A DNA stretch of 64,000 nucleotides from Lathyrus oleraceus (taxonomy: Eukaryota > Streptophyta > Magnoliopsida > Fabales > Fabaceae): positions 428,686,136-428,750,135 of the forward strand of contig NC_066581.1 of the NCBI RefSeq assembly GCF_024323335.1, written 5' to 3'. The notes below the pieces were generated by a model. It did not search any database. It had not been told where the DNA came from and worked only from the letters and a program-made list of their open reading frames with translations. The translations under genes were made by a program, and so were the position numbers. This document shows positions 1 through 57,041 of this stretch, piece by piece. How positions within the stretch are numbered: position 1 is the stretch's first letter; each line of letters begins with the position of its first letter.

Positions 1-2235
1 TTCCTTCTCGAATGCGGTCTTAGGAGGAGCTTCCTCAGTAGTAACCTCTTCGGTGGCTACCTGTTTTCCTTTAGCCTTGGCAGCTGCCTCAGCTTCAGTA
101 TTCGTGCGCAATGTTGATGGTGCAAATAGGCGTCCACTGCGAGTGAAGCCACCAACCCCTCCAACATTGTCTACAGCGGAGCTATCAATGTCAATGTCTT
201 CCCTGTTAACTTTCCGCTCCTGGAAGTAGATATCAGCCCCATAGTGCCACGAGATAGCACTGTCTTTCTCATACGGAACAGGTCCTAGTACCGTGATGGT
301 GACCGGACTAACCAAAGCCGATTGAGGGCTGTCAGAGTAAATTGTAATTGGTGTTGGACTTTCGACGTTCACCGTTGCTGGTTCTGTACTTTCTAGGAAA
401 TATACTGTTATTGGAGCGGGTCTCTCGGGAACATATATTTCTTCAGGAGTGAAATAAATCGTCACTGTCGACACATCATTCTTCACTGGACGGGTCTGAT
501 CGAATTGGAGACAACCTTCATCTATCAGTTGCTGAATACCTCTTCTCAAACTGTCACATTCGTTCTCGGCAGCTTGACAATTTCTGCACTCTTCCCCACA
601 GCCCGGGAAAATCTGTCCTTTCAAGAGCCAGTCTTTAACCAACAATAGCGAAGTCTTCACTTTAGTCACATCAGAAACCAAATTCAAAGCTTCCCCACTA
701 TCAACAGCATTAATCCTCTGCCCGCCGTAAGCTGGCATCGGGTTTTGGATAACATTAGGCACTGGAGAAAAATTGATAGCCTGGGCATCTCTCAAATCTT
801 GTACCTTTAGCTGGAGAGCCTTGCAATTATCTGTAGTATGACCAGGTGCGTTGGAGTGAAAAGCACATCTGGCATTGACATCATAACCTCTAGGCAAATT
901 ATTGGGATCGATTGGTGGGGCCAGAGTCCTTAACGTAACCAGATTCAGGTCAATCAGCATGGGAAGTAATACAGAATAAGGCATGGGGATTGGCTCAATG
1001 ACCCGGTCTGTATGCCTTGGACGTTGTTGATAGTGTCTCTGCTGACCCGGATTACCTCCTTGTTGTTGATTATTGTACCTGGGTTGCTGTTGCGGATGAT
1101 ACTGCGGCTGTTGTTGTTGTTGAGGAGCAGGTGTAGGAATAGTGACTGCGGCCACTTGATCTTGATAATAATTAGGGCGTCCTCTGCCCCTGCCTCTGCC
1201 GGCATACACAACGCTTGTCTCGCCTTCTCTTCTTCGCTGATCGTTACCAGCAAACGGTTTCTTGGAAGCACTATTGTCTTGAATTCGGCTCATCTTCAAC
1301 AGACTCTCGATTCTTTCTCCAGCAATTACTATCTCTGCAAAGCTGATTGACGGGCAAGCAGCCAACCTCTCAATATAATTGCCTTGAAGAGTGTTCATGA
1401 ACATGTCCGCCATCTCCCTTTCAGACATAGGGGGTTGGACGGACGCAGCAATTTGTCTCCAATGCTGAGCATATTCTCTAAAGGTCTCCTTGGCAGTCTG
1501 AGACATTCCTTGCAATAAGGTCCGATTTGGAGCCAAGTCCAAGTTGTATTGATATTGCTTGACAAAAGCCTCTGCCAAGTCTTTCCAGCTCTTGATGGTA
1601 GTACGAGACAAATGAGAATACCATTCACGAGAAGCTCCAGTTAGACTGTCTTCAAAGTAGTACATCCACAGCTTTTCATCTTCCGTGTGGGCTCCCAACC
1701 TTCCCAAATAAGATTGGAGATGAGTGCGTGGGCAAGAAACCCCGTTGTATTTCTCAAAAGTAGGGGGTTTGAACTTGTGAGGGATCCTTACTCCCTGAAC
1801 CAGACCAAGATTTGTGACATCAAAACCTAAGGAATTTTGAGACTCCAAAGATTTGAGCTTCTCAGCAAGCTCATCCATACGGCGAGTGGTCTCATGGGCT
1901 TCGTCGTGCAAACAGAATTGATCATACTGATAATCCTCAGTAACGGGGTGCCCGTTAATCCGAATTCCTTGATTCACATTGTACCTTCCGCCAATGCCAT
2001 TTCCAACATTCCCCGTGTTTCCAACATTACCCGGGTTTCCATCAGCATTTGTGTTACCCGCGTTACCAGTGTTCATAGGGTTATCAGCGTTCCCAGGGTT
2101 ACCAGGGTTTCCTTCAGCATTTGGTATCTCTACCTCTGGATCGGGCCTCGGTTGCTCAACCAATTCCCTCAGCTTTTCCTGGCCTTCTGCCATACCAGTC
2201 ATCAATGTCATGAACCGATCCATCCTTTCACGCAT
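1..2235 (-). CDS. Gag-type polyprotein of Tat/Ogre-like retrotransposon, partial
   Basis: The frame is open for 745 codons from an internal Met (2235) to the window edge. The apparent original ATG at 2265 is followed four codons later by TAG (2253-2251), so either translation restarts at 2235 or this copy is dead. In order the protein shows an acidic, helical N-terminus; a Gly/Asn/Pro low-complexity stretch (about 1980-2130); a conserved capsid-like core with EWYSHLS (near 1620) and VKQYQYN; a Gln-rich stretch; and a C/H motif resembling a zinc knuckle, CAFHSNAPGH...NC (about 845-870). Near the left edge it has TRSGRLFAPS, typical of the gag-protease linker in this group. Gag packages the element RNA in cytoplasmic particles. 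Family assignment rests on similarity to the other gag copies in this window and on general knowledge of Tat/Ogre elements. Confidence 0.85.
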   Translation of the reverse strand, partial: MRERMDRFMTLMTGMAEGQEKLRELVEQPRPDPEVEIPNAEGNPGNPGNADNPMNTGNAGNTNADGNPGNVGNTGNVGNGIGGRYNVNQGIRINGHPVTEDYQYDQFCLHDEAHETTRRMDELAEKLKSLESQNSLGFDVTNLGLVQGVRIPHKFKPPTFEKYNGVSCPRTHLQSYLGRLGAHTEDEKLWMYYFEDSLTGASREWYSHLSRTTIKSWKDLAEAFVKQYQYNLDLAPNRTLLQGMSQTAKETFREYAQHWRQIAASVQPPMSEREMADMFMNTLQGNYIERLAACPSISFAEIVIAGERIESLLKMSRIQDNSASKKPFAGNDQRRREGETSVVYAGRGRGRGRPNYYQDQVAAVTIPTPAPQQQQQPQYHPQQQPRYNNQQQGGNPGQQRHYQQRPRHTDRVIEPIPMPYSVLLPMLIDLNLVTLRTLAPPIDPNNLPRGYDVNARCAFHSNAPGHTTDNCKALQLKVQDLRDAQAINFSPVPNVIQNPMPAYGGQRINAVDSGEALNLVSDVTKVKTSLLLVKDWLLKGQIFPGCGEECRNCQAAENECDSLRRGIQQLIDEGCLQFDQTRPVKNDVSTVTIYFTPEEIYVPERPAPITVYFLESTEPATVNVESPTPITIYSDSPQSALVSPVTITVLGPVPYEKDSAISWHYGADIYFQERKVNREDIDIDSSAVDNVGGVGGFTRSGRLFAPSTLRTNTEAEAAAKAKGKQVATEEVTTEEAPPKTAFEKE

Positions 2236-3281
2236 ATCAGTCAGCTCTTTCTATACCTGGTCCATGGCTAGTTGCGGATGATTTTCCTTGGTCGGGTACC
2301 TGTGGACTCGCTTGGGACCAATAATGCCCGAGACAGGGAATAAACATTAGACACTGCGGTGACACCTGCAAAACAAACAAGGGTTAGTATGCATGGTATG
2401 CGATGCGTTGCTTATTCAATTTTAAGGCACCCCCTTAAAAAGGGAATACCCCGCAAATGAATAAGCATGAGATGTTGGATGCAAATATGCAAATGATGTT
2501 ATGCAATGCAAAGGCATGTCAATCAGGATTGCTGGATCCGCTTGAACATCTGTCAGGTTGCACTGTCTGAAGAGAAACTCCACTGAAGAATATAATACAA
2601 GATCAAAGCTCTGCTCCAGAAAACCGGGTTGGTTGAAGGTTAAGGTTTCCTGAATTTAGCCCACCCCTCACTGGTAGGTTCTAAGAACAGAAGTTCGTCA
2701 ACTTCAGCCCTTCAGTCGAGAATAATACGTTTACCACTGAAGGTTTAGCATTATTACGGGATAAAAAGACCTCCGCTGACTCCCCTCAACAGGACATCCT
2801 AATAGTAAGTTCCCAGTCTCGGGGTCCTCGGATTGATCAGCGAGAATGCGCCCACCAGAGCTAACATAATCACGTCTCGGAGGAGAGGCCTCGACTGAGT
2901 TCTCGGGAAATGGTCACCATAGTCGACGATTTCTAGAGGAACATCATGTCGTTACGGAACACCCGTAGGACAGAATATATCCAAAAGAAACCTCGTCTGG
3001 GTGTGGGTCTTCATGAACGACTTAACGTAGCAACACGCCACGCAAGCCTCATGACTATCCACTCTAAAACCTGTGTGTACGCTCAAGCCTGGGTAATGGG
3101 CTTATCTCTCATAGAACATCCCACCCCAACAAACAGAACCAGCAGATGCGGCAATCATATGTACACAATGCAATAAGATAAAGTAGGTAAAGGCTGAAAA
3201 ATAAATAACTGTACAAAAGGATAAACACCCAACAAACAAGCAACCTACAAAAGCTAGGAGGGACTCGCTTAGGGAAACCAG

Positions 3282-3301: not shown

Positions 3302-3473
3302 GCTGCCGCAACCTGCGAAAAAAACAACCGGCGAAAAAAGAAATGACAGAAGAGTCGCCACCGGGCGTTATTTATCCCAAAGGAGGGAAAGGAAGCGCTC
3401 GAAGTAAACCTGGGAGAAAGGAAAGGAAAAGACAAGGTCTCGCAACCAAATCTTGGGTTCGGGAGTCGATTAT

Positions 3474-3779
3474 GCGAAGGGAAGGTATTAGCACCCCTAC
3501 GCATCCGTAGTACTCTACGGGATCCACTTTTGTTATTCTTGTTTAAAGGGTGTGGGTTTATCTAATGTACTATTTACTAAAAAGGGGTTTAAAGAAAATG
3601 ACTCGCACGGATGTCGCATCCACTGCATATGTATCTCATCTGAATATGAGAATCAGAGTCTTCGTAGCTCGGCTGCCTATGGGTTAGGGGGATATGTGCT
3701 CGGTAAGACGTCGCGTCTTATGCCTACGTATCTCATCTGGAATGAGAATCAGAGCATGCCGTAGTTCGGCTAACTACGG
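3474..3779 (-). other. Structured R-U5 region of the LTR (hairpin set A)
   Basis: Minus-strand order is: hairpin CCGTAGTT/AACTACGG (3779-3759); three-way-junction motif (3756-3697) with closing stem TGCTC/GAGCA, stem TCTCAT/ATGAGA and stem TAAGACG/CGTCTTA; a second such motif (3660-3600) with GACTC/GAGTC, TCTCAT/ATGAGA and GGATG/CATCC; AGTA-loop hairpin CCGTAG/CTACGG (3520-3505); and hairpin GCGTAGGG/CCCTTCGC (3502-3474) with one mismatch. The stems differ in sequence from the equivalent ones in the other LTRs, while loops and linkers are shared. Function is unknown. Packaging, dimerisation, polyadenylation or tRNA loading are possibilities only. Confidence 0.65.
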
Positions 3780-5185
3780 GGTTGGTTGTGTTTTTGGGTG
3801 AACGACATTACTACGCAATCTACCGGATGCTCGACCTTTAGAGACTTACTCGCCTGTAGTAGAAGGAGTAAACGTGTTCTTAGGAGAAGAAAAATCAATG
3901 AGTTGGGGTGTTTTATGGATGCTCATGCAAAAAGGCAGTCCTAGACAAAGGAACCACGCTACCTTAATAAACATGCAAACGGGAGACTATCAAACCATAC
4001 AAAACAAACATGCATAAAGTAAACACGCCAGCAAAGGGGCTCAAACACGCAGGGGTAGGGCTTTAGTCAAGAGGGGTCATATCAACCTCGACAAACAAGC
4101 CATGGAAGGGTAATCAAACGGGCTCTTAACCACTGACATTGAACGTCAGGGTGAGCAGATCAGAGGGTAATGAGGATAAGACCTCATAGCTCTTAACCCC
4201 AGACAGGGTGAGCTCATGACAAGGCATGGGGGTTTAGAAAGATGGAACCCTCTCCACTGACCGACCGGACAAAAGATCTTGGGCTTTTGTTCTGAAGCAT
4301 CGACACGTAGTGTGATCTTAAAGAACGACGCACTGAATAACGGGGGATTGACTACTAATCCCTTTTATCCGTCAATTGCCTCTTCATGGAGGTCTTTAGG
4401 CACAAAAATAAACACACAAAAACATTGCCTCCTATCGAGGTCTTCCAGCTAAGAAAACGGTAAAATGCGGGAAAAATAAAGGATCAAAAAGGTCTACCGT
4501 ACGGATAAAGATCCGAAGTAACAACAACTAAAGAAATAAGAAACCCGGAGATCTCTCAAGTTGGCACCATCAAAGAAAGCAAGTCAATACAGGTAATCGA
4601 AATAAATCTCCAAATGGTATCCCACAAATAAAGTGGAATACTAAGCAAGCTATCCTTTCAGGGTTCATGTGAGCCCTCACAAAAAAAACTTCAACAAACA
4701 GGTTAGAGAAACAAGATGGAGTGCAATCAAGAATTGCACCAAATAGAGAATCACATGAATCATGCCATTAAAGTTCACAAAAAGCTCACAAAAAGCAACC
4801 AAGGGTAGGAGGCCTAAACCTCTTGCCAAACACATGCATCAAAAGGGTATCAAAATTCAAAGTCAGGGGGCAAGGATCCACACATCAAGGCATGACATAC
4901 ATACTAAAACATGTGCCCACATGCAAAACCTAACGATAATACCTCATACATTCATAGCATTCAAATTGAAAGTATAGAGTAATGGAGATAGGGCAAACCT
5001 GATTGGAGAGATCGAATGAAATTGAATTGCCCGGTTGAATTTGCAAAGCAATTTGAGGGTTTATATGAGATGGGATTGGCTCTTTGCAGATGAGTTCCTT
5101 TCAGTCTCTGGAGGCTGCTCTGAACTCTGTTAGATCTTCTCTCTATCTTTTTCTAGGGTTTTTTTTGGGAGATGGAAGTCTAGAA

Positions 5186-5384
5186 TTTATAACCTGATTT
5201 TTGTGGGCTCAAATGAGAGAGGTCCAAGTCCAAGATTTGTCTGTTATATTTTATTTATTTATTTATTTATTTTTTTATTTTTTTTATTTTTAAACGCGTG
5301 CGCTTCGCCTAGCGAAGGATTTGCTCGCCTAGCGAGCATGACAGTTCCTTTCGCTAAGTGAACCACGCTGCTCGCCTAGCGAGC
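5186..5384 (-). promoter_or_regulatory. LTR promoter: TATA-like box and upstream palindromes
   Basis: The minus strand has TTATAAA at 5192-5186. Upstream of it lie four near-palindromes of 13-15 bp: 5303-5317 (CTTCGCCTAGCGAAG), 5323-5337 and 5370-5384 (both GCTCGCCTAGCGAGC), and 5350-5362 (TTCGCTAAGTGAA). Being upstream of the TATA box within U3, they are candidate enhancer or repressor sites. No binding protein can be named. Confidence 0.5.
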
Positions 5385-5642
5385 ATGACAGCTCGGGGAC
5401 AGATTTTGCTTCTTCAAGATTAGCGCTTTGAGTGATGAGTAGACCCCATTTGAACCTGTTGGAAGTAGCTCAAGTTTTTCCCTTGTGTTGACTGATCACC
5501 CGGATAGAACCCACAAAGAGTCTTGAATGATGTTCAAGCTTCTTGGATCTGATTCTGATTGACATGATGAAATGCAATATGAAATGTTAAATGACCTAAA
5601 AATGAATGCATGAATGAGGAGGGCAAATTTTGGGGTGTTACA

Positions 5643-7586
5643 CCAGTAAAGTTCCAATACTACCCAACAAGTTAGGTTTACTGAACTTTGTCAGTAGCCT
5701 TATTTTTCCAATATTTTTCTCATTATCATCCTATTGGTGAAAGTCCCTTGATGAATAATGATCATTGTCCTGTTTACGATAAACGTTATCTTTTTGGCAA
5801 TGGTAAATCCTTGACACTTGTGATCTTACTGTCACCCTTTTGGTGTCGATGATCCTTGAAGTTATTGGTCTGACCTTCATCCTTTTGGTGAATAGTGACC
5901 TCTCATTATTAAAACTTATTGTCATCCTTTTGGTGGTAACAAGTTTTGTCGTTTGATCTTACCGTCATCCTTTCGGTGTCGATGATCCTTGAAGTTATTG
6001 GTCTGACCTTCATCCTTTTGGTGAATAGTGACCTCTCATTATTAAAACTTATTGTCATCCTTTTGGTGGTAACAAATTTTGTTATTTGACCTTACCTTCA
6101 TCCTTTTGGTGAATGGTAACCTCTGCAATTATTACAGCTTACCGTCATCCTTTTGGTGTCGGCGATCCTTGTGGTAATAGGGATCCTTATCATTTTGGAC
6201 CATCATCCTTTTGTTAATGGTGATCTTTGTTATTATGTCTAATAATCATCCTTTTAGTGATGGCGTGTAGTTCGATCTAAATATCATCCTTTTGGTGATA
6301 TAGATTATGGAGTTTGGTTTAAATTATCATCCTTTTGGTGATTGTGACAATGGAAAGGTTCAATCTTACTGTCATCCTTTTGGTGTCAGTGATATTTGAA
6401 GTTATTATGACTTGGTATCATCCTTTTAATGGTAACAAGTTTCGAAGTTATGATCTCACCTTCATCCTTTTGGTGATGGTGATTGTTGACTCATTATCAT
6501 CCTTTTGGTGATAATGGGTTTTGTTTTGATCTCACCTTCATCATTTTGGTGATGGTGATCATTTAGGTTGTTGTGACTTATTATCATCCTTTTGGCGATA
6601 ACAAGTTTTGTTCTGATCTTACCTTCATCCTTTTGGTGATGGTGATCATTTAGGTTGTTGTGACTTATTATCATCCTTTTGGTGATAACAAGTTTTGTTA
6701 TTGATCTTACCTTCATCCTTTTGGTGGCGGTGACCATTAAAATTGTTGTGACTTATTATCATTCTTTTGGTGATAACAAGTTTTGTTGTTTGATCTTACC
6801 TTCATCCTTTTGGTGACAGTGATGATTGGAGTTATTGACTTATTATCATCCTTTTGGTGATAATAAGTTTTGTTATTAATCTTACCTTCATCCTTTTGGT
6901 GATGGTGGTCGTTGAAGTTATTGGCTTATTATCGTCCTTGTGGTGATAACAAGTTTTGTTGTTGGATCTTACCTTCATCCTTTTGGTGACGGTGGTCTTT
7001 GAAGATTGATGAATTAACTATCATCATTTTGGTGGTAGTACTGCTATTATCCTTGCGGTAATGGAAAGCTTTATCAGAACAACCATCATCCTTTTGGTGA
7101 TGGAAATCTTTGAATTTAGTTGTATCTAATTTTCATCCTTTTGGTGACAGCAAGTTTGGTTATTAATCTTACCATCATCCTTTTGGTGATGACTACCTTT
7201 GAAGCTTGATTTATCCATCATCCTTTTGGTGACGACGATCCTGGAAATCGGGGTGAATTACTATCATCCTTTTGGCGATGGCAATTAACTATACTGTCAT
7301 CCTTTTGGTGCCAGAAACATTTTCAATTTTAGTCTCACCATTGTCCTTATATCAAAAATGACATTTGCAAGATTTGAGTGTCGACTCAAGGGTTGGCATT
7401 GATTGGACGTCCTACCCCTAATACATTGGTGCTGTTAGAGTTTGTTGCATTTTCTTTCTGCATTTCTCCATTGCATTTCAAAGTACAAAATTTAGATCTT
7501 TTCGTATTTAATTATCTTCCACCACGAATGTATGAAGACTGTTGTCATTCTTACCTTCTAGTATAAGTTAATTAAATAGGGGCAAC
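5643..7586 (+). repeat. Ogre 3' UTR with hairpin minisatellite, copy 1
   Basis: About 40 tandem, diverged units are built on the core CATCCTTTTGGTG, spaced about 40-50 bp and often alternating in two types, such as TTATCA...TGATAA and ACCTTCA...TGATGGT. The array ends in a purine-rich tract, ATAGGGGCAAC (7577-7586), directly before the LTR at 7587, as expected of an Ogre 3' UTR and polypurine tract. It is non-coding; the short frames across it on the minus strand only reflect repeat periodicity. It is cut at its left end by the minus-strand element. Confidence 0.85.
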
Positions 7587-11204: not shown

Positions 11205-11484
11205 CGTAGTTCCCTGAACTACGAATGCTCTGATTTCCTTATTACACCTTAAGGAGACGTAGGTAGGAGATTGTTGTATCTTCGTGAGCACACTAATAAA
11301 AAACCTCCCTTTTCCCCCCTTTGAGGATACCATTCATCTTTATTATCGATATTTAATCACTCAAAGAAAGCGAATAACATTCAACTAACATTCAAATAGC
11401 AAATTAGACTAAAAGGTTCCCGTTGAGTACAACGGGCGTAAGGGGTGCTAATACCTTCCCCTTACGTAATCGACTCCCGAACCC
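11205..11484 (+). other. Structured R-U5 region of the LTR (hairpin set B)
   Basis: Order: hairpin CGTAGTTC/GAACTACG (11205-11223); three-way-junction motif (11226-11290) with closing stem TGCTC/GAGCA, stem TCCTTA/TAAGGA, linker ACGTAGG and stem GGAGAT/ATCTTC; AGTA-loop hairpin CCCGTTG/CAACGGG (11419-11436); hairpin GTAAGGGG/CCCCTTAC (11438-11465) with loop TGCTAATACCTT; then CGACTCCCGAACCC. This is the same order as in the minus-strand LTR at 3474-3779, with different stem sequences. Confidence 0.65.
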
Positions 11485-16109: not shown

Positions 16110-17618
16110 CTCCTTTGATCAATTTGAGTTTTGATCCATTCCCCTCCCTCTTCATCTCATTCCCCTTCTTTATGCATTCACCTCATTTGACCTATGATAT
16201 CTCAAAGTCCTAAAGCTAGTTGATTGAAAAATTAACATGAGTATGGATGAGATTAGGCCACACCTTTTGCATATTCTTTTTGTGTGTGGTATGTTTCATG
16301 AGCATAGTCCATAATACTATGTCTCTAACATGCATTAACACCAAAATTCTATTGCCCGACCTCAAATAGTTGTGACTTCTACATAAGTCCAATTACGATT
16401 GCTTAACATAGCGCTAAATTTGTGACATAAAAGGCATAGCATTCTAGTTAGTGAGATTGTAAGTTTCCTATCTTTCATGGTATTGTGTGGAAACTTGGCC
16501 TTTTTTCATTCCTTTGGAAGATGTCTTGGTTCAAGGATCCATGCTTGTGATAAGTGGGTTGAGTGTTCTCCAAAGAATGTCTAAGAATGAAAAGCAAAAC
16601 TAAAACAATACTAACTTCTAACCTATTAACAACTAACTTTTAATTTCAAGCCATTTACTTTAATGTCATTTAATTCTAGCTTTTATACATTTGCCATTGT
16701 TTATATCATTCTAATTGTTTATGTTAATGCAATTTTTACTTTGTCCACTTGGACCATATTGTGTGATATATTTTGTTTGTGTATACTTTGCTTGTTTGTG
16801 TGGTCTTTGACCATTAATGTACATAATAACAACAAAAACCCTAAAAAAAACTTTTGTGTGGACTGTTGGCTTGATCTTGAACAAATGGACTTAGAACTTA
16901 GGCAACATTCCTATGCTAAAGGACTTGGCCAATGCCAACTTATTGAGAAACCAAGTGTTTTCAATTTGAAACTTCATCTGATGCATCATTCAAGATCCCT
17001 CTGAGTTCACCTGCAACATGACCATTGTGAAGCTGTTATTTTGAACCTGTGACTTGTGAAATTCATCTGCTACATGGGTTAATCTTGAAGAAGATCATGG
17101 AATGGATAAGCTTGGATGTGGCTATCTTTATTTGATGTCTTTGCTCTTCAAGATTAAATAATTATTCATTTGTGTATTTCTTGATTCTAAAAAGTCCAAG
17201 GGAATTCTGGGTTTCTATTGACATTCTTGTCTATTGGATTGCTACCCATTTGGTAAGATCTTTTCAACTCTCAACTTTTAATGTTTTGCATAGGATTAGT
17301 CCCTTCATCTTCTCCCCATTTCTTTAATTTCAAAATCTCTCCCTCCTCTTTTCAAAATCTTCTTTGATTGAACTTATTTTGTTCTAAAACTTTGACCACT
17401 TTGCAAAAAGATAGAAACTTTGGCCTTATGTCATTGTATTTTCAAACTTCTTTTCTTAAATCAAACTTGTAAATAAACTTAACCATACTTGACTTAAAAT
17501 TTCAAAAATCCAAAAAGAACTAACTCATTCAAACCATTTTTAGGCCTTTGTGCCTTTCAAACTTAATTTTTGTTAAAAGGAATGCATCCATTTTGAAATT
17601 TGTATCATGAACTATGAG

Positions 17619-17840
17619 GTTTTGATCCCTCATTTTTATGTTGGTACGTATGCACAAGACCGAAGGTCTTGCCAAACACAAAAATATAAATAATTGAATT
17701 ATTTTCTCATCTCCCCATTCTATTTGCTTGTAAACATCATTTTTGTACCAAATACATATGCACACAAAAAGGGCTCCCTAAGAGTACCTAGGACACTTTG
17801 GGTGCTAACACATTCCCTCTATGTAACCAACCCCCTTACC
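17619..17840 (+). other. Structured R-U5 region of the LTR (hairpin set D)
   Basis: A diverged copy of the hairpin set: closing stem GTTT/AAAC (17619-17677), a weak middle stem, linker TACGTATGCA, stem CAAGACC/GGTCTTG with loop GAA (17655-17671), AGTA-loop hairpin CCTAAG/CCTAGG with one mismatch (17777-17792), then GGGTGCTAACACATTCCC. The order is conserved although almost every stem base differs from sets A, B and L. Confidence 0.55.
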
Positions 17841-21008: not shown

Positions 21009-22510
21009 CTAAGGATCCCTAACAACAATGTCAGAAGATCTGGCTGTAGGCGCGTACTTCCTTCGAATACGACGGATCTCGGTCTCAAAAGAAGCCTTTA
21101 TCTGAGTCTTCTTGAGGACAAGCTGATCAATAATCTTCTTCCAAGCAACGGAAGGCTGAGGCATGCTACTAAATGAAACCTCTGGCCCTCTCTGTCTCTT
21201 TGTCACTCGGTCTTCAAGTAGCTCAATAAGTGCATCTTTGTCCTTAGACTCCAACTGCAACTCTTCATGCTTCTTGCTCAAAGCACGGAAACACTCTTCC
21301 CACATGTCCTTCTCTTGCTTCATCTTGACGAACGCGTCTTCCAACTCCTCTACATCTTGGTTAGGGAGATTTAATGGCTCAACCACAACCATAAACATAG
21401 GTCTTTCACAAGGATAATGCATCTTCAACTCCAAAGCTCTCTTCCTCACCCAAAGAGTGTAAGCTTCCAAAGTTACACAATTGCACGGACCAAGCTCGGA
21501 TCTTCCTTTCCTATGCACATTATGCCAAGCATGCACAATCTTCTGCTTCAAATGTTGGGGATCTTTACCCTCTTGATAGAAAAGACCTTCTAACAAAGTG
21601 TTATTAGGCTTGTCTCTCAAGGGGAACCCAAGTTGACGATGAGCCAAAGCATTGTTTAGTTAATTCCTCCTTGTTTACCAATGAGAGGCACATTAGAGAA
21701 TTCACCACAACTATCAATAATCTCTGAACTACTCAAAGACGGATCATACCAAACTATATCATCATTAGTGAGAGACATAAGTCTCTGAGACCACCTTAGA
21801 CATTGCTTGTTCTCCACAAAAGCAGGTGTCTGAGGCAAGTGTGAAATAAACCACTTGTACAGAAGAGGAATGCAACAGACAATCGTTCCACCACCCTTAA
21901 AATTCCTTAGATGCAAAGAGAAATACATATCACCCAACAAAGTATGCACAAGATTCCCAATCAAGAAAAGTCTAATGGTGTTAACATCAACAAAACCGTC
22001 AATGTTAGGGAACAAAGCTAATCCATAGGTGAGCAACACAAAGATAGCTTCAAAAGCATCCACACTATCGGCTTGAGCAAAAGCAGTAGCTTCCTTGATG
22101 AGGAAATCAGATGGCAACCCAAATAACCCTCCTTTCTTCACCCAATGAGCCTTTATCTCAGACTTCTTTAAGTGAAGAGCTTCAACAATAATACTAGATC
22201 GGGGAATCTCCTCCAATCCACTAAAAGGCACTCTACTAGAAACAAGTATCCCCAAAAGATGAGAATACTCCTCCAAGGTAGGCATAAGCTGAAAATCTGG
22301 GAAAGTGAAACAACGGTAGAGAGGATCATAGAACTGCACTAGCACACTCAGAAGTCCTTTAACCACATTAACAGACAAGATAGACAAAAGCTTCCCATGA
22401 CGTTGTTTGAAGTCCAAGGGATCTAATATAAAAGATGATAGCTTTCTTAACTCTTTCAAGTCGGGACATCTGAAACTGTACTTCTTAGTGTTCCTTCGTC
22501 CATAATCCAT
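21009..22510 (-). pseudogene. Ogre ORF1 protein, one frameshift
   Basis: The first frame (22510 to 21656) encodes 284 residues from MDYGRRNTKKYSFRCPDLKEL. A 1-base loss near 21657 creates TAA, and the second frame (21647 to 21009) carries on without a gap in sense from LAHRQLGFPLRDKPNN for about 210 residues to ...SSDIVVRDP. The N-terminal half resembles the plant mobile-domain-like ORF1 protein of Ogre elements (YDPLYRCFTFPDFQLMPTLEEY). The C-terminal half has a likely coiled coil (EELEDAFVKMKQEKDMWEECFRALSKK). ORF1 lies before gag and its role is unknown. Except for the frameshift this copy looks intact, so it decayed recently. Confidence 0.75.
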
Positions 22511-22694
22511 GGTCTGGAAATATTTGCAAATAATACCTCAGTTCCTTGAAATTTTCGTGCGATGAATGTTATGATGTGCATGAATGCATGAATGCAACAA
22601 TCACAAATAAGGGATCACACACAAGGCAAATAAAGGTCAAGGGATGAATCAAGTCATTGTCAATATCAATCATCCATTTTGGTGTATTATGGTT

Positions 22695-23547: not shown

Positions 23548-26351
23548 AACTTCACACCAGCCTGAACGAGCAGAACAATTCCTAACGAATCTAGCTTGAC
23601 AACAAATCAAGATATAAAGTCCCGTTTCCTCGAATGAAGGCAATCATTATGCCATTTTTACCATTTTGCATTCTTGTAATTTGTTCTTGTTTGTCTAAGT
23701 ACTGTTTGCTTTAAACATTGTTATTTGTATTTGGTTTTATTAATGGAATGATTACGCATGGTTTGAATCAATCTTTTCACATTCACTCATATTATTGCAT
23801 TTGCAAAGCACAAACACTTACTTTTCCACTTCACCTTCTTTATCACTATTGTTAGCAAGTATGGGAAGGAGGATGACAAAAACAAAATACTCATAATTGT
23901 TGATTGCATGCTTTCGGATAAAATCTCGCTAATGATGTGCATGCATTGTTTCAAATCCCTAAACACTGGAGAGATAAGGAGTTAATCCCTAGTCAACCAC
24001 TTCGAGCCCAGAAGTAGGAGGATCTACAAACCTTTATGCTTAACCTGGGGAAGGGTAGTGTTCAGTTGATCTGACTACGCATTCAAATTACAAGAGGAAA
24101 TGTCTCATATTAGGATCAACCACATATTCTTCGCACACATTCTAAAGTGTCGAAAGAACCATATAAAATCCAAGGTTTATGTCAGTTGTTCTTCAATGAC
24201 CAATGACTTGGTAGTCACACCCAAAAAAAATCATCAAAGAAAGAACCCTCTAAGTCAAGCGCCCTAAAAGGAAACTTAGGCAAAAACTGGGGCAATCCCG
24301 ATGGATTAAAGCTTCAAAAAGCGGTCCATGCAAAATTAGGGATCAAAACAAAAATCGAGAGAGACAATGAAAGTCCTCAACAAAACAAGAATCAATGACC
24401 ATCATACCAAGATCGAAAGGTCACCAATATTCATGAAGAACCAAATAAGAAAACTGCCATTTCAAGAGATCTTACACTGCTGAACTCTCGTAAAAGTTTA
24501 ATGTGTGCGTTGAATTAACTGAACATAGGATTGGAGATCATCATGAAGAAGGGGTGGGTTAAAGCAAAACTTGAGCCTTATATCCTTGTGTTCAATAACC
24601 GTGAACCAAGCCACGATACAACCCTCAAAAGACCTAATTGAAGTAAGGTTTATTCAGAAAGCATGCTACAGCAAGGTTGTGCAAGTTGACTCCTAGAAAT
24701 TTGCTAATATTCTATTCTCACTTTATCACTCACACCACTAACATGCTAGCTAAAATCAACACCGTGTTTGGACTCATGGTCCACTTGCCACACACTACCA
24801 CGACACTCCAAATGAATGATTGTTTTTCAAGACTTGCATAACTATTGCATTAAAATCACCATTTCTTGAATGAACAATTCTTAAACTGCAAGTCAGTACT
24901 TGACATCGAGGAAACGCCAACAGAGGGCAATTCGAAAGATACTTGATCATTGGTCCTGACACGAATCAAGACCATCTCATAATCCTATGAATCAGGGGCA
25001 TGGCATCTTTTGATTATGTTGACTTAAGAAGTGGTCAGTATAAGGCAAGTCTCCAGGCAACAGTTGGCCATGGAGAAACACACTTCAATACTCAGTCTGC
25101 CTGGGGCAAGTCTCTCGAAAGCTCAATCAGGGGCAAAATTACTCCAAGAGTACAGTGAAAACCAACTCCTAAAGATCAGTCGATAGAAGAGAACCGTTTC
25201 AAGAATCAGCTAATCAGGGGAAGACCATTGCAAGATTTAGACATGGGAGGAAACAAACTCGAACCATGTCATGGGATGATCATTCCTAAAAGTTTCCTTT
25301 TAAGGAGAAGTCCTTTAAATACCCTACAGACTGGGGCAAGACAAGTTACAAGGGGAAAGTTCCCTCCATATCTTCACGTCGGTCAAACAGATCGTGTCGG
25401 ACACTAGTAACGGTTTGAATTCACAACAAAGTGTCGAAAGTTCACGCCAATACAACATCATATATTAACAAGAATTCTTATGGCATATCAAAGGCATAAT
25501 CATCATGTGTTGATCATGTCGCTATACTCAGTTACAGGCTGGCCAAATATCTCAGAAGAAGAAGCCAAGATCGCCTCAAGGGCAAAGACAACGTATCAGT
25601 AAGAAATCAAACTTGGGGCACCAGGAGTATCCACATCCGTTGTGTGTTCATCACGTAATCAACTACCGAGTGTCGGGAAGTCAGATCCTTTCACCAACCA
25701 ATAATCCAACCCATATTGACAGTTACCAGAAAAACCAAAGTCCACCTTGTTGGCATCCCACATAAAAAACAAATATAATCAGCATTGGTATCTATGAAAG
25801 ACATCGCCTTTGAAAAAGGGAGGCCAATCCCGAACAAGCCAATCATCCTCTGCATTCAAACATGCATTGCATGCATCACCTCATATATAATGCATACATG
25901 ACATTTATGCATATAACACGAATCAGGATCCAAGGGTTTAGCTGTAAGAATCTGGGTCAACCCTCAGTCAACTCATTGGTACTTTCTCCGAGTGAGTTCC
26001 TACCCTATGTCGTTTTACCATTAGGCGTCCCCTATTGAATTATACCCCTTAACCTTTTGTTCATGAGATGTTATCCTCGGTTAAAGTCATTGGTATTTTC
26101 GTTGAGAAAGTTCCTGTCCTCTATTGTTGGGTGTTTCCCATTGAGTTGCATCCTTTAACCTTTTGTTGTCGAGACGTCATCCTCAGTAGATTCAATGATT
26201 TCTTTGAATAAATTCCAAACTTGTTTGTTTCTCATTGGGCGTCCCTCAATAATTCGTTTCCTTTAAACCTTCGGTAAAGTGAAAATTACATCCTTCCAGA
26301 GAATATATTTTCTGCAACCTTTTGTTGTTGATACCCCCAAGTAGTATTACC
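23548..26351 (+). other. Ogre 3' region without pol
   Basis: Directly after gag the sequence is of the type found downstream of pol in Ogre elements: ATTCTTGTAATTTGTTCTTG, AAGTACTGTTTGCTTTAAACATTG, and many GGGGCAA-type purine runs between 24990 and 25620. No protease, reverse transcriptase, RNase H or integrase coding is visible, so the element lost pol by deletion or belongs to a non-autonomous gag-only form. I see no gene here. Confidence 0.65.
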
Positions 26352-27411
26352 CAGTAAAGTTCCAATACTACCCAACAAGTTGGGTTTACTGAACTTTGCC
26401 AGTAGCCTTATTTTTCCAATATTTTTCTCGCTATCATCCTTTTGGTGAAAGTCCCTTGATGAATAATGATCATCGTCATGTTTACGATAACCATTATCTT
26501 TTTGGTAATGGTAAATCCTTGACATTTGTGATCTTACCATCACTCTTTTGATGTCGATGATCCTTGAAGTTATTGGTCTGACCTTCATCCTTTTGGTGAA
26601 TAATGACCTCTCATTATTAAAACTTATTGTCATCCTTTTGGTGGTAATAAGTTTTGTCATTTGATCTTACCGTCATCCTTTCGGTGTCGATGATCCTTGA
26701 AGTTATTGGTCTGACCTTCATCCTTTTGGTGAATAGTGACCTCTCATTATTAAAACTTATTGTCATCCTTTTGGTGGTAACAAGTTTTGTTATTTGACCT
26801 TACCTTCATCCTTTTGGTGAATGGTAACCTCTGCAAATATTACAGCTTATCGTCATCCTTTTGGTGTCGGCGATCCTTGTGGTAATAGGGATCCTTATCA
26901 TTTTTGTTCAACCATCATCCTTTTGTTGATGGCGATCTTTGTTATTATGTCTAATAATTATCCTTTTGGTGATGGCGTCTAGTTCGATCTAAATATCATC
27001 CTTTTGGTGATAGAGATTATGGAGTTTGGTTTAAATTATCATCCTTTTGGTGATTGTGACATTGGGAAGGTTCAATCTTACTGTCATCCCTTTGGTGTCA
27101 GCGATATTTGAAGTTATTATAACTTGGTATCATCCTTTTGGTGGTAACAAGTTTCGAAGTTATGATCTCACCTTCATCCTTTTGGTGATGGTGATTGTTG
27201 ACTCATTATCATCCTTTTGGTGATAACGGGTTTTGTTTTGATCTTACCTTCATCCTTTTGGTGATGGTGATCATTTATGTTGTTGTAACTTATTATCATC
27301 CTTTTGGTGATAACAAGTTTTTTTCTGATCTTACCTTCATCCTTTTGGTGATGGTGATCATTTAGGTTATTGTGACTTATTATCATCCTTTTGGTGACAA
27401 CTATTTTGTTA
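26352..27411 (+). repeat. Ogre 3' UTR with hairpin minisatellite, copy 2
   Basis: Nearly the same sequence as 5643 to about 6690, starting at the same CCAGTAAAGTTCC. This copy is uninterrupted at its left, which gives the empty site for the minus-strand insertion at 5642. It stops at GGTGACAACTATTTTG near 27411, before reaching the polypurine tract. Confidence 0.85.
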
Positions 27412-27437
27412 GAATAGTTGTGATATCTAGGGAGATC

Positions 27438-33009: not shown

Positions 33010-35372
33010 TGTGCTCATTCCAACACTAGGATAGTTATTACGATTGTGACTTGGCTGACGGCATGAACTACATAATCTAACCATTTTATTCGCCATATCC
33101 ATTTCGGTTCCAGGTACTGTTTGGGCGACCCTTTTTCTTCCTTCGTATAACTTCGTTGTGTCAGACGATGTCCCCTTGATATTCTGGCCAATAATCCTCT
33201 TTTGGCACTATGGAAAAACTAATTTTATAAACATTTGATAGGCTGATGACTTTGTAAACTTCAGATAGCAAGTATGATGGATCCCTTCGAACCTTTGAGC
33301 ATGCTGCAATGACATGGGAGTAGGGCGTACGAAAGGCTTGGAATTTTCCGCAATTGCACCAACCTCTATCTAGTTCGACTCTGTACTGTCCCATCGGCAT
33401 GTCCTCATTGTGATCCATGGACTCGGCAACACTATATCAACCTTTAGTGCAGTCAAACACCGTGACTACATGTGTGTTTGCTTTGCCAACTTCATGTCTA
33501 ATGAGTTTCATTGAAGCATCACTGAACAACTGCCCAGATTGCAACACTGAACTCCATTGGGAACATCGACTCTCAAATAGCGCCCCTAGCCTGAAATATG
33601 TTACCTGCACCAAAGCGGTTATAGGTAGGTTACAGATGCCTTTAAAGACAGAGTTCATTGATTCCACAAGATTTGTTGTCATGTGGCCCTAATGTTTACC
33701 GTTGTCGTATCCACTTCTCCAATGGAATACTATCGATTCATCGTACTGCATCTTCGTTTGACAATCTTATTTCTTCACGATAGTGTTTGAAAGAAGGTTC
33801 TGATAATGCATAACCTGCATTGACAACCTTCTTCCGCAGCGTCTTATCTTTGATTTCCCGCATGAAATTCTAAGCAATATGTCTAATACATAACACATGC
33901 GTCGAAAGAGGATTTTGCCAGCCATTATCAATGTTATTATATGCATTGATGATTGAAGCGTGTCTGTCGAAGATTAAACATAAGTTAGGCTGAGGTGCAA
34001 CGTGAAATCAGAGATTTCTTAGGAAAAAACTCCATCCCTTAGCAGTCTCCCCTTCAACTAGGGCAAAGGCGATTGGAAAAATGTTGTTGTTCCCATCTTG
34101 TGCCACTGCCATCAGTAGCATTCCTTTGTATTTCCCATACAACCATGTACCATCAATTTGTATAATTGGTTTATAGAAAGAAAAAGCCATGATGCATGGT
34201 TGATATGCCCAGAAGAGACGGTGGAATATTCCATTTCCAACAGCATATGTCCCGTCTGGTGTATACGCGAGCAATGTTTCCAACTTGACAATAGTCCCAG
34301 GACCATATTATTTTAGAGCCAACAGGTATTTTGGAAGTTGTTTGTAAGACTCCTTCCAATTGCCAAACACTTTTTCAACAACCTTTGTCCTAGCTATCCA
34401 CGCCTTCCTATATGATGGAGTGTACTCGTACTCTACCCTAATATGCGAGATTATTGTACTCACCTTTAATGACAGATTGTCGCCAATGACAGACAATATT
34501 TCATCGCATATTAGCTGAGAGCTTAATTTTCGATGATCCTGCATTGGGTTTGTCAGCATGCATGTGTGGTCTAGACCCATTGATCCAATCTCCCAAGACT
34601 CGTTCCTCTTCCGGTACGAAGCTGACAACCTAAAAAGGCAGTGCTCATTCGGACAATAAATTTTATACCTCAATGCGTTAGTTCTGTTAACTCTGAAATC
34701 AGCTGATTGTTGCATGTGTAATTTCTTAATGGCTTTTACACATTCCTCTTTTGTGCGAAATGTGTCTCCTTGTTTCAAAGATCCTTGCATTTGCACATAA
34801 GGATTGTACCATATATCTGATGAAGGTTCATCGGAACCCAAATTCAACCTTGTCATACGTTGGGGTGGACAATATACATGACTAGCTGGTATCGACTCTT
34901 CTTCCTCATCAGCGTTCACCATTGAATCAACCATGATCTCGGCTTCTTATTCTTCGTCATCTGGAACATTCACCTCAGCTTGTTCGTCATCAGTTTAACA
35001 AAACATTTGCGACTGATCAATGAACTGAGACACTTGTTGTTGATGTGGTAATATATACCACTATATATCGTTGAAACCGGATTGTTCGTGACTGACAAAC
35101 ATATGCTGAACATCGTCATCATCTCGAATCTTCTTCTGATAAAACTTCACCTGGTTTTCTACAAACCAAACCGGATTTTTATAGATGATTTGACCCACAT
35201 TACTGCACTGCAATTTCTTTTCTATTCTTTGTTTCAGATGTAAAAAATTTGATCGTCGATTTATTATAAACCGAGTTACCTTTGTATTTCGAAAACAAAA
35301 ACCGAATAACTGATGATCAAATATTTCACTTTCGATATGAGCAATGATCATGTAATTTTGTGTGGAAGACAT
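33010..35372 (-). pseudogene. MULE (MuDR-type) transposase, multiply broken
   Basis: Successive minus-strand pieces read as one protein: an N-terminal domain (35372-35061); an acidic linker; the MuDR N-terminal domain (34934-34308: TFRTKEECVKAIKKLHMQQ, YKIYCPNEHCLFRLSASYRK); the catalytic domain (34283 to about 33850: PIIQIDGTWLYGKYKG with the first Asp, then LCLIFDRHASI with the second); then NLVESMNSVFKG (33680); the SWIM finger (about 33370-33300); and a degenerate C-terminal zinc knuckle (CSSCRQPSHNRNNYP, about 33015-33060). Breaks include stops near 35061, 34308 and 34008 and a frameshift between 34008 and 33682. The SWIM motif reads CNC...TPYSHVIAAC, with Tyr where the family has the third Cys. 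It is not functional. Confidence 0.85.
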
Positions 35373-36056: not shown

Positions 36057-39000
36057 ATGGCTCACTCACTAATAAGAAATTCAATTAAATCTTTAAACCC
36101 TAAATTACTATCCACGCTATCAGCTCACCGGATCGCCCGCCATTTTGGCTCCGTGGCCGCCGCCGACGAGGAGCAATCGTCCTCCTTCACGTTCTCATCG
36201 GAGGGAGACAGCGTTCATTTGAGAGCACCGGCGGCGAGGAGGAAACAGTCTTCGTCGGTAACGATGCCGATGTCGTTCATGACGGGATCTATAGTCGGGA
36301 AACGATTCTACAAAGAAGTGAAAACGAGAGAAGCGGATGATGGTAATGGTTGGACAGTGATGCTTGATTATAGAACACTCAAGACACCTGCTAAGAGGCC
36401 TCTTAAGCTTCCTACTCTTGCTCTTGCTAAGGCCATTGCTGCTGAATGGGAATATCAAGTATGATTTTTGGTTTTCTTTCTGCTTTTTGTTGTAACGTGT
36501 AGTTATAGTTATTCCTTTATTTTGAATTGTGTTGATTTTGTGAAACTGATTTGGGTTGCGTGTCAATGGTAGATAGAGATTAAAATAGGTGAGATATAGA
36601 GACAAAGTTAAGGTAACTTCATCGCCTTAAAGTCACCCAAGCCTGATCCTCTTCATGGGAATGAATTAGGTAACTTTGTGGCGGGTTTTGATCCTTGGCT
36701 ATGCGGTTCGAGTAATATATGTTGAGAGAGGTGAAACCCTTAAATGAAATATATTGAAAGAATTCCATTACTTTGAAGGATTAGTGTTTATAGTTGCATG
36801 CCAGGATACCTTGGTTTGCCAGTAAAATGTTGCAAAATTCAGCACAAAAGCTGCTTTTTGTTAATTTCTGAACTTAATAGAAAAGTCAAGGTATTAAATT
36901 ACACTTGTGTTGCAGATCCTTAATATTGCACAAAATACAGCTACAGCAGATGCAGTTAGGGTCATGAAGGCATAAAAAACATTAACGTCTTGGCATCTTT
37001 GCAGTTATGGACCATTATTTTTACTAGTCTTGCCAAACTGAGGATTGTAAGCAACAAATTAGTTTTCATCCAAACATTCTAAAATAATGTTGTTAGATTG
37101 AAAATAATGTCTGGTAGCATGATAGTTTGTGCCAGCTTCCCCTTTGATATGGTTATCAAGATTGGTATCTTGCATAAGCCTGGAAGAGAATAGCAAGATT
37201 GTAAAATATAAAATTGTAGTTAAGATTGGAAGATCCTACCCAATTATTTTTGTATGATCAAGAGGGGTAGCAGGATCGTAAAACATAAGATCGCAACAAA
37301 AACTGTAATATCCTACTAAAATGAAAAAATAATACTATATTTTTACATGATATATTTTAGTAGGCAAGTCTTTTTGTGGGAAAGTAACTCTTTTTCATGT
37401 TCTTTAGACATGTATGATTGAGTTTTTATACTTTATTACTACCACATGAAACATTTGTTAGACATTAGAGACATATTTGGTAAATTACTAAGTTTATCTT
37501 AATTCAATTATTTCAAACGAACCCTACAAGTGAGAGGTTTATTCTCTAGACCCAAAATCTAAAACTTCATTTTAAAAGGCATGCATTCATCGCCGCCAAA
37601 CGGTAATTGTTGTGCCTCTGCATCTTGTTATCTTTTAATGGTGGTAGTCAGAAAATGGTCTATCATGGCTGAAATTGGCAAAGATTGCACAAAATCAATG
37701 ATTGTACAAATTTTCCACAATTTGGCTACAACACATGATTCTACTTAAGACCGGGATCGTTGGGGTGTGTGAGATAGTAAAATCTTAAGATTTTAAGATC
37801 GAGATCTTGACAACCTTGTTATGCTTATATGTCCTTAAACAGTCATTCAAAGTATTTAAATGGCCTTGATTTGAAGCTTCATATTCTGTTTAATATGGTT
37901 ATTGATGCTTGGGAGCATCATTTAGAGTTAAATGTGTAATCAATTTGATTTATTATTGTAGCAAATAGATGGCATAAGACCCTTCACAATGCCTCTTATG
38001 AGACTTGCTTGCACTGCTTTGGAAAGAGTTCCTGTGACAAGGCCAAAAATTCTTGAGCAATTGATGAAGAAATTTAATCAAGATTTAGTATTTTGCCGTG
38101 CTCCTGATGACAATGATTTGACAAGCGGAGTCCATGGTATGGTGTTAGTTACCGTGATATTTCTTTGTAAATGTCTGATATCAGTTAAGAACGTGATTTC
38201 CTGTTGTAAATATGCAGAGTATATTGAACTCGGAATGTTGGAGTCATCCTTAAAAATTTATTATAAAAAGCATATTTTTAGTGCTCTTTTTATTCTTTAA
38301 CCGATCAAATTTAGGCTAGCTAAACTGATTTGACAGTTTCAATGAATGCATTGAAAAGTGATATTGATGGTTTTGGAGACATAGACTTGACTGTGGCAAT
38401 GGCAACTATTTAAATTCTATAGCTCTACTCATGGTGCAGTTGTTATACAAGAAAGATAAATAACAATCACCTCTCTATAACTAATAGTGTCATGAACTTT
38501 TAAGTCATGTGAATTATGTGCTATATTGCAGGTATTGAGTTTTTATAGTTTATGCCTATGTCTGTGAAGAGGACTTACCATGAAGATTAATTATTATTTG
38601 TTGGTTGGATAAGTGGTGATGTTGTGATTATATTTTCGCAAGTTTTCTTCATGTTTACCTCATCTCCGGAAGATGTTATTAAGAGAATATTTTTGCTTTA
38701 CCTTCTTGGAGTGATAAATTTGCTTTTACTATAATGCTGTTGTTGACGAAAACTTTTTATGATAAGAGACATTTTAATGATTTTGAGAAAGATGTGGAAA
38801 TAATTTAATATGAAGTTATGTTCTTGCAGATCGCCAAGTTGAGAAAATAGATCCTCTGCTAGGCTGGTTGGAGTCAGAATTTGGTGTTAAGCCTGTTGTA
38901 TACTCCAGCTTTTATGGTGGAAAACAGGATGATGGTCTTGTGATTGCTGTAGAGAACCTACTAAAGAAAACAGATGATTGTGAATTGGCTGCAATTGATG

Positions 39001-42478: not shown

Positions 42479-42492
42479 TACTCCCCCTTTTT
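42479..42492 (-). promoter_or_regulatory. Polypurine tract of the copia element
   Basis: AAAAAGGGGGAGTA on the minus strand directly precedes the 3' LTR. It is the plus-strand cDNA primer, and its form is typical of SIRE/Maximus elements. Confidence 0.85.
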
Positions 42493-51881: not shown

Positions 51882-51886
51882 TTGTG

Positions 51887-56340: not shown

Positions 56341-57041
56341 TCCCTTTCAGGGGAACTACATCGCCCTGATCCTCGTTCCAGACGAGGTATGTAGGCAGGT
56401 GGTCGTGCGAGACCACTCCGGGCACCCTTTTCTTTTTTGCGTGTGTTTTGTTTGGCAGCTATCAGGCTCGAGTTCTTGACTCCCTGTTAGTCTGTGTGTG
56501 CCGTTTCTTCTGACGTCTCAGCGTCTCTTATGGCTTGCTTGATGACTTGTAGGCTCGAGTTCCCGACTCCCTACTAGTTTGCATGTTCTTTCTTTCCCTT
56601 TCAGGGGAACTACATCGCCCTGATCCTTGTTCCAGACAAGGTATGTAGGCAGGTGGTCGTGCGAGACCACTCCGGGCAACCTTTTTCTTTTTTGTGTGCG
56701 TTTACTTGTTATCTGACTATGTGTTTTGGTTCGGATGCCGACATAATTCCATCAAGTGGTAGTCGGGCTCCATGTTTACCATCTTGGTTTGTTTAGTTGT
56801 TTTGTGTGGTTTGGGCGTGCGTAAGCCGAACTACAGTGGCTCTGATTCTTGTTCCAGACAAGATATGTAGGCATAAGGTGCGATACCTTATCGAGCTCGT
56901 TCCTCGTAACCCCACCTGCGTTCCCCGTGTGTGTGTGTGATGTTTAGCAACCTTTTCTTTATTCTAGGACGTGGATCCCGTCGAGTACGACGGACGTGAG
57001 GGGTGCTAATACCTTCCCCTTGCGTAACCGACTCCCTTACC
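56341..57041 (+). other. Structured R-U5 region of the solo LTR (hairpin set L)
   Basis: Three copies of the three-way-junction motif: 56363-56423 (closing GCCC/GGGC; CCTCG/CGAGG around TTCCAGA; GTGGTC/GACCAC), 56617-56677 (GCCC/GGGC; CCTTG/CAAGG; GTGGTC/GACCAC) and 56859-56896 with its 5' closing arm at 56839 (GCTC/GAGC; CTTG/CAAG; TAAGGT/ACCTTA). Copies 1 and 2 belong to direct repeats of about 97 bp starting at 56341 and 56595. Then come AGTA-loop hairpin CCGTCG/CGACGG (56978-56993) and hairpin ACGTGAGGGG/CCCCTTGCGT (56994-57025, two G-T pairs) with loop TGCTAATACCTT. Confidence 0.7.

What the first reader, a model, noticed from the sequence alone, without database searches (positions are those of the whole stretch)
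3600..3756. A covarying three-way-junction motif recurs seven times in the 3' parts of four different Tat/Ogre LTRs
The pattern is closing stem, TGAT, hairpin with loop near TTCCAGA, linker TA(C/T)GTAGGCA, hairpin with a short GCGA-like loop, closing stem. Instances: 3756-3697, 3660-3600 (minus), 11226-11290, 17619-17677, 56363-56423, 56617-56677, 56839-56896 (plus). The closing stem is TGCTC/GAGCA, GACTC/GAGTC, GTTT/AAAC, GCCC/GGGC or GCTC/GAGC. Stem 2 is TCTCAT/ATGAGA, TCCTTA/TAAGGA, CCTCG/CGAGG, CCTTG/CAAGG or CTTG/CAAG. Stem 3 is TAAGACG/CGTCTTA, GGATG/CATCC, GGAGAT/ATCTTC, CAAGACC/GGTCTTG, GTGGTC/GACCAC or TAAGGT/ACCTTA. Arms change in pairs while loops and linkers stay, which is the signature of selected RNA structure. 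I know of no described element of this form in plant LTRs.
Basis: partly seen in the sequence, partly recalled or inferred. Interest (0 to 1): 0.9.

Follow-up and report, generated by a model that had tools for sequence, protein, structure and literature searches.

The report
Repeated RNA fold in legume retrotransposons
The long terminal repeats of several legume jumping genes carry one to three copies of a small RNA shape whose paired letters change together while its loops stay largely fixed; it is probably a control signal of the element's own RNA, it matched no family in the RNA library searched here, and its function is still unknown.

Summary
Seven copies of a three-way-junction motif lie in the 3' parts of four divergent LTRs, at the stated places. 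A covariance model from LTRs A and D finds held-out copies in B (E 9.9e-8) and C (E 1.4e-9); the sequence-only model finds B weakly (0.0016) and C not usefully. A model from D alone ranks the four other copies next. In 16 of 22 pairs both sides change; 96.6% of 149 cells pair. Proteins translating unseen relatives show four further coordinated changes that fit the stems. I add: conserved upstream CTACR can pair with YGTAG of the linker, a pseudoknot with the helix order of HDV ribozymes (suggestive only); two more covarying hairpins follow in all four LTRs; G·U exceeds A·C, favouring sense RNA. Rfam gives no credible match. Most likely it is a cis-acting domain of genomic RNA (packaging/dimerisation, or export); xrRNA-like and ribozyme roles are untested. 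Against: energy folding alone is unremarkable and C's copy is weak. No plant DNA collection could be searched, so breadth is unknown.

The parts
3697..3767 (-). Copy c1 in LTR A: CTACG 3764-3760; closing stem 3756-3752 with 3701-3697; TGAT 3751-3748; stem 2 3747-3742 with 3736-3731; CGTAG 3728-3724; stem 3 3720-3714 with 3710-3704
3600..3670 (-). Copy c2 in LTR A; upstream pairing only 3 of 5 in this copy (linker TACATATGCA; a Pisum relative reads RYVC, which fits TACGTATGC)
11216..11290 (+). Copy c3 in LTR B; found by the model when held out of training
17609..17678 (+). Copy c4 in LTR C; stem 2 imperfect; found by the model when held out of training
56353..56424 (+). Copy c5 in LTR D
56607..56678 (+). 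Copy c6 in LTR D, duplicate of c5
56828..56897 (+). Copy c7 in LTR D
3472..3520 (-). LTR A: AGTA-loop hairpin (3520-3505) followed by TGCTAATA-loop hairpin (3504-3472)
11420..11467 (+). LTR B: AGTA-loop and TGCTAATA-loop hairpins
17777..17824 (+). LTR C: degenerate AGTA-loop and TGCTAACA-loop hairpins
56978..57025 (+). LTR D: AGTA-loop and TGCTAATA-loop hairpins
3303..5642 (-). LTR A (3' boundary approximate): TGTAACACCCC start, TATA-like TTATAAATT at 5191, GGGATAAATAA at 3378, PBS-like TGGCGACTCTGCTGGGGA starting near 3301
1..2250 (-). gag ORF of element A (Retrotrans_gag; runs off the window), sets the sense strand

Best explanation
The motif is a sense-strand RNA domain in the transcribed 3' part (R to U5) of Tat/Ogre-type LTRs. 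One helix closes a three-way junction carrying two hairpins, with a conserved TGAT joint and a TAYGTAGGCA-like joint; conserved CTACR upstream probably pairs with YGTAG of the second joint as a pseudoknot. One to three copies come before two further conserved hairpins, then the LTR end and PBS. I propose that this array is a cis-acting leader of the full-length genomic RNA, bound by Gag and/or a host protein to select unspliced RNA for packaging and dimerisation. Shown: covarying nested helices and the order of modules. Supported but not proven: sense strand as RNA, the pseudoknot. Inferred: that it is transcribed in this RNA, and the packaging role.
For: Covariation and held-out recovery. Protein-level paired changes. 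G·U over A·C. The motif has the orientation of gag and PBS in A and of the PBS in B; in all four LTRs the order is motif, AGTA hairpin, TGCTAATA hairpin. TATA-like boxes lie 1.4-2.9 kb upstream in A, C and D and GGGATAAATAA close to the LTR end in A, B and D, so transcription through the motif is expected. In rice Retrosat2 the R region is described as starting just after the TATA box and running about 2 kb (PMC3485330, passages). Precedent: Ty1 has a 5' pseudoknot with a major Gag-binding site, and a cited title calls it required for efficient reverse transcription (PMC4974528, passages).
Against: No expression, probing or binding data. The same review says a role of the Ty1 pseudoknot in encapsidation could not be demonstrated. 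Transcription start and poly(A) sites are guesses from sequence; Retrosat2 also has a 1-kb conserved U5, so the motif could lie in U5. One of the five covariation measures, further pair types, does not exceed its control: 191 of 500 shuffles as high in A6, 449 of 500 in A5. The pseudoknot alone is weak: 32 of 35 cells paired, one covarying pair, 45 of 500 shuffles as good, mismatches in c2 and c4. Variable copy number (1 to 3) is unusual for a strict packaging core.
Confidence: 0.42

Rival explanations
1. A nuclear-export element for unspliced element RNA, working like the MusD MTE or a viral CTE.
For: [quoted passage not shown] A cited title calls pea Ogre partially spliced (reference list), so unspliced RNA would need export. 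Repeated copies would suit multivalent binding (inference).
Against: No Rfam match. No plant export element appears in the listings I saw (partial lists).
Confidence: 0.2
2. A mechanical block to 5'-3' exonucleases (xrRNA-like): the 5' strand pairs into the junction, so that an exonuclease from upstream stalls and the RNA is protected.
For: Class 1 xrRNAs pair 5'-end nucleotides with three-way-junction nucleotides and can occur in several copies (PMC5760640 and PMC7527734, passages). Our upstream strand may pair into the junction, and LTRs carry 1-3 copies.
Against: [quoted passage not shown] A downstream second pseudoknot was looked for by eye only, and not seen. The first pseudoknot is only suggestive.
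Confidence: 0.1
3. A self-cleaving ribozyme of HDV-like fold: upstream pairing = P1, closing stem = P2, stem 2 = P3, stem 3 = P4, CC of the stem-2 loop with GG of the linker = P1.1.
For: Helix plan like the nested double pseudoknot of HDV-like ribozymes (PMC4908430, passages; strand order and residue details recalled). CC in the loop and GG in the linker co-occur in c1, c3, c5, c6 and c7 (by eye, sequences).
Against: No Rfam HDV match at E up to 5 for D or up to 10 for A, B, C. Only 2-4 nt lie between stem 3 and the closing stem, a conserved TGAT separates P2 and P3, stem 2 is 5-6 bp, the putative P1 has 3-6 bp, and conserved GAA precedes it. Self-cleavage in R would cut the genome.
Confidence: 0.04
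4. A translation element (IRES or shunt landing site) for gag behind a long leader.
For: The predicted leader of A from the TATA box (5191) to the gag region (about 2250) is long.
Against: The motif is far upstream of gag; a leader intron could remove it; no Rfam match.
Confidence: 0.1
5. DNA-level inverted repeats or neutral sequence conservation with no RNA role.
For: Loops and joints are conserved as sequence; energy folding is unremarkable.
Against: Coordinated nested helices, G·U 10 against A·C 2, structure needed for held-out recovery.
Confidence: 0.05

Closest known systems
Ty1 5'-terminal pseudoknot (yeast LTR retrotransposon)
   Same: Pseudoknotted cis-acting RNA near the 5' end of an LTR-element genome, with a Gag-binding site
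   Different: R pairs with sequence downstream of the PBS; no repeated three-way junction mentioned in the passages seen of PMC4974528
MusD MTE / transport elements
   Same: Structured cis RNA in LTR elements with pseudoknot and loop contacts
   Different: Mouse element with a stated export role; helix plan not compared here (PMC12786077, passages)
Flaviviral class 1 xrRNA
   Same: Three-way junction whose junction nucleotides pair with the upstream 5' strand; several copies
   Different: Pairing strand lies between P2 and P3 here; no second pseudoknot seen by eye; longer upstream pairing
HDV-like ribozymes
   Same: Helix order P1-P2-P3-P1'-P4-P2' (recalled), possible CC/GG P1.1
   Different: No Rfam match, short J4/2, TGAT insert between P2 and P3
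Retrozymes (hammerhead ribozymes in plant LTR elements)
   Same: Plant LTR elements that hold a structured RNA (listing and abstract start, PMC4918200)
   Different: Hammerhead core (recalled) is absent; no Rfam hit

Membership tests
Any Rfam 15 family | Match at the curated score | tested here: not met
   0 matches at gathering over the window; none at E<=5 in D (9) or E<=10 in A (83); 5 weak matches in B (84) and 7 in C (85; lowest E 0.052, HOTAIR_2, minus strand), all far under their gathering scores
HDV-like ribozyme | Helix order of the nested double pseudoknot | tested here: inconclusive
   Order matches if the upstream pairing is real; that pairing is suggestive only
HDV-like ribozyme | Catalytic core J4/2 with its cytosine and following purines (residues recalled) | tested here: not met
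   Only 2-4 nt between stem 3 and closing stem in all seven copies (by eye, sequences)
HDV-like ribozyme | Self-cleavage at the 5' end of P1 | not testable with these tools
   needs an in vitro assay
Flaviviral class 1 xrRNA | 5'-end nucleotides pair with three-way-junction nucleotides (Pk1) | tested here: inconclusive
   32 of 35 cells paired, one covarying pair, 45 of 500 shuffles as good
Flaviviral class 1 xrRNA | Few or no nucleotides between P2 and P3 (subclass 1b) | tested here: not met
   10-nt linker here; feature from PMC7527734 passages
Flaviviral class 1 xrRNA | Second pseudoknot of the P3 loop with downstream sequence; Xrn1 stop | not tested
   looked at by eye only; no assay possible
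Hammerhead ribozyme (retrozyme) | Conserved core and Rfam match | tested here: not met
   no Rfam hit; CTGAT is not followed by the hammerhead core (core recalled)
Tat/Ogre LTR retrotransposon (host element), LTR A | gag kin, TGTAACACC LTR start, PBS (that these are Tat/Ogre features is recalled) | tested here: met
   gag with Pisum/Vicia relatives, LTR start and PBS
Tat/Ogre LTR retrotransposon (host element), LTRs B, C, D | same features | tested here: inconclusive
   B: PBS-like sites only. C and D: no PBS-like site by the pattern used, LTR starts not found; assignment rests on shared modules

The most novel reading that the evidence does not exclude
Plant LTR retrotransposons carry tandem pseudoknotted three-way-junction RNAs, topologically like HDV ribozymes, in which the 5' strand is threaded into the junction and which act as exonuclease-resistant roadblocks protecting the genomic RNA: an xrRNA class outside RNA viruses, evolved independently.
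Probability: 0.09. Interest if true: 0.92.

Novelty: new variant of a known kind. Interest (0 to 1): 0.62.

Why it matters
By a review's abstract, LTR retrotransposons make up to 90% of some plant genomes (PMC12786077, seen in the listings), yet my paper searches met no described RNA structure of this form in their LTRs. A conserved, repeated, covarying fold with a usable covariance model gives a concrete target for probing, for finding element RNAs, and for asking how full-length genomes are chosen, exported or protected.

Tried and rejected
External DNA relatives: patterns in viral contigs (0 hits; 18 loci) and genome contigs (0 hits). The 18 loci scored no better than E 0.096 with R1 and are treated as chance. 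A gag search in viral contigs found none. The window's own genome could not be searched: the genome search answered busy in all ten tries. Paper searches for printed motif letters gave 78 papers (30 listed) and 29 papers (10 listed); listed titles did not concern LTRs and none was opened.

Upstream hairpin: in c1 and c3 CTACG can instead pair with a CGTAGTT just upstream (by eye). It is not shared by all copies, so I did not adopt it as core; it may compete with the pseudoknot. Pisum protein P0117 also seems to cover a c1 relative, but its 5' half is missing (spliced gene model or deletion), so I used only its c2 relative. The weak R1/R3 hits at 38990-39045 (-) and 16283-16349 (-) (E 0.014 to 2) were taken as chance. 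Hammerhead, T-loop/tRNA-like and purine-riboswitch likenesses were considered from memory and dropped.

The first MAFFT alignment of all seven (A4) misplaced c4 and c3 and was not used for counts. The seven-copy counts use the model-fitted alignment A6, which leans to the nested helices but not to the pseudoknot; 5 of its 154 cells were set aside as gaps, four of them in the imperfect stem 2 of c4, so A6 does not show those mismatches.

Full report
WHAT IS THERE. The window is plant DNA with nested LTR retrotransposons. Its gag ORF at 1-2250 (-) has Retrotrans_gag; its best named relatives are Lathyrus oleraceus (Pisum) and Vicia villosa proteins, after unnamed proteins of which the closest is a JGI protein at 92% identity (111 proteins listed from the 7991 candidates scored). 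Four LTRs are involved: A (minus, 5642 to about 3303), B (plus, PBS-like site at 11642), C (plus, 3' end not located) and D (plus, ending near 57180 by eye). In the self-comparison A, B and D share stretches near the LTR end, and A and D also the motif (78%) and one mid-LTR stretch (67%); C gave no such match. Each LTR holds one to three copies of the motif.

ANATOMY. Order: GAACTACR (GAGCTAC in c2, GAACTAT in c4); 2-4 nt; closing stem (4-5 bp); TGAT in all seven; stem 2 (5-6 bp, loop near TTCCAGA); TAYGTAGGCA in four copies, near variants in c2, c3, c4; stem 3 (5-7 bp, GCGA-like loop in 5 of 7); 2-4 nt; closing stem 3' arm. In the seven-copy alignment (A6, model-fitted) 16 of 22 pairs have changes on both sides, 34 such cells, 96.6% of 149 cells paired; shuffles average 77.9% and slid controls 31-50%; the count of further pair types is not above its control (191 of 500). 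In the five-copy MAFFT alignment A5, 11 of 23 pairs (upstream pairing included) have changes on both sides, 96.4% of 111 cells pair, and further pair types again do not exceed the control (449 of 500). Energy folding of single copies is unremarkable (z -0.50 to -1.85) and c3 and c4 fold otherwise.

HELD-OUT TESTS. R1 (c1, c2, c5, c6, c7) found c4 and c3 at E 1.4e-9 and 9.9e-8; the sequence-only R2, also with filters off, gave c3 0.0016 and for c4 a fragment at 1.8. R3 from LTR D alone put c1, c2, c4, c3 directly after its training copies.

PROTEIN-LEVEL CHECK. In c1, c5, c6 and c7 the motif is open in one sense frame (LIL[V/I]PD[E/K]...), where stem arms fall on codons that are reverse complements. 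One search returned two proteins: P0126 holds two motif copies and P0127 one. Against c7, P0126's second copy reads R-T..C-P for K-V..Y-L in stem 3; against c5, P0127 reads E-T..G-L for V-V..D-H. All four replaced residue pairs admit perfectly complementary codons; a random pair does so with probability 0.185. The letters beneath are unknown, so this is compatibility, not observed pairing. Of 14 proteins, P0117 (Pisum) covers a c2 relative; P0114, P0116 and P0122 begin inside one.

PSEUDOKNOT. CTACR with YGTAG: 5 of 5 in c1, c3, c5, c6, c7; 4 of 5 in c4; 3 of 5 in c2. The last pair is G-C in four copies and A-U in three, but the three share one LTR. Alone it is not significant (45 of 500 shuffles), though sliding it by 1-3 columns drops pairing from 91% to 0-49%. 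I put it at about 0.6.

NEIGHBOURS. Downstream in all four LTRs are a hairpin with loop AGTA and a hairpin with a TGCTAATA-type loop, degenerate in C: 7 of 16 pairs change on both sides, 92.2% of 64 cells paired, no shuffle of 500 as good on any of the five measures. The motif is thus part of a structured region. G·U cells outnumber A·C cells 10 to 2 over nested pairs of both alignments, as expected for sense RNA; the structures were drawn on the sense strand, which biases this somewhat.

WHAT IT IS NOT, AS FAR AS TESTED. Rfam 15 has no credible match. The fold shares helix order with HDV-like ribozymes (order recalled) and a junction pairing with class 1 xrRNAs, but a defining feature of each fails, so I file it under neither.

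FUNCTION. Position and repetition suggest a cis-acting signal of the full-length RNA. I favour Gag-related packaging or dimerisation, with export next; xrRNA-like protection is the boldest open option. None is shown. My estimates: structure under selection 0.93; pseudoknot 0.6; the whole packaging/dimerisation account 0.42.

LIMITS. All DNA evidence comes from one window. No plant DNA collection was open to me, and the own-genome search did not complete. Novelty rests on Rfam and on open-licence paper searches whose lists were mostly partial: 3 of 3 listed; 20 of 41; 20 of 377; 20 of 55; 15 of 77; 8 of 8; 12 of 17. I saw listings and abstract starts, and passages only of PMC12786077, PMC4974528, PMC5760640, PMC7527734, PMC4908430 and PMC3485330.

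Noticed in passing
3472-3520 (-), 11420-11467, 56978-57025, 17777-17824: Two further covarying hairpins (AGTA loop; TGCTAATA-type loop) follow the motif in all four LTRs.
   Followed up: yes
LTR A and LTR D between those hairpins and the LTR end: GNRA-type hairpin GGTTGCGAGACC in A and GGTCGCAAGACC in D.
   Followed up: partly
4187-4170 (-) and 55978-55995: Hairpin ATGAGG-TCTTAT-CCTCAT in A against GTGAGG-TCTGAT-CCTCAC in D, further upstream in the LTRs; read by eye.
   Followed up: no
c1 and c3, 5' side: CTACG can also pair with a CGTAGTT just upstream, a possible alternative to the pseudoknot (by eye).
   Followed up: partly
sense frame through c1, c5, c6, c7: Stem arms fall on codon boundaries, so the motif reads as ORF text with reverse-complement codon pairs; it surfaces as predicted proteins (P0126, P0127).
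   Followed up: yes
21656-22537 (-): DUF7745 protein (E 3e-105), which I take as the extra ORF1 of Ogre elements (recalled).
   Followed up: partly
40664-42479 and 50067-51882: 99% identical 1.8-kb repeats flanking ORFs that look copia-like to me: a young LTR element; R1 reported no match inside it at E<=10.
   Followed up: no
11642 and 11714: Two PBS-like GGCGACTCTG sites 72 nt apart behind LTR B.
   Followed up: no
57554-57673 and 57788-57907: Identical 120-nt repeats around a TGGTATCAGAGCC stretch; looks like a short TRIM-type element (name recalled).
   Followed up: no
5635-7374 and 26344-27417: Large tandem-repeat arrays in two places about 20.7 kb apart, 95% alike over 5635-6700 against 26344-27411.
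   Followed up: no
63518-63997 (-): Part of a 2Fe-2S (Fer2_3) protein, probably succinate dehydrogenase iron-sulfur subunit (name inferred).
   Followed up: no
34308-34946 (-): MuDR-type transposase fragment.
   Followed up: no
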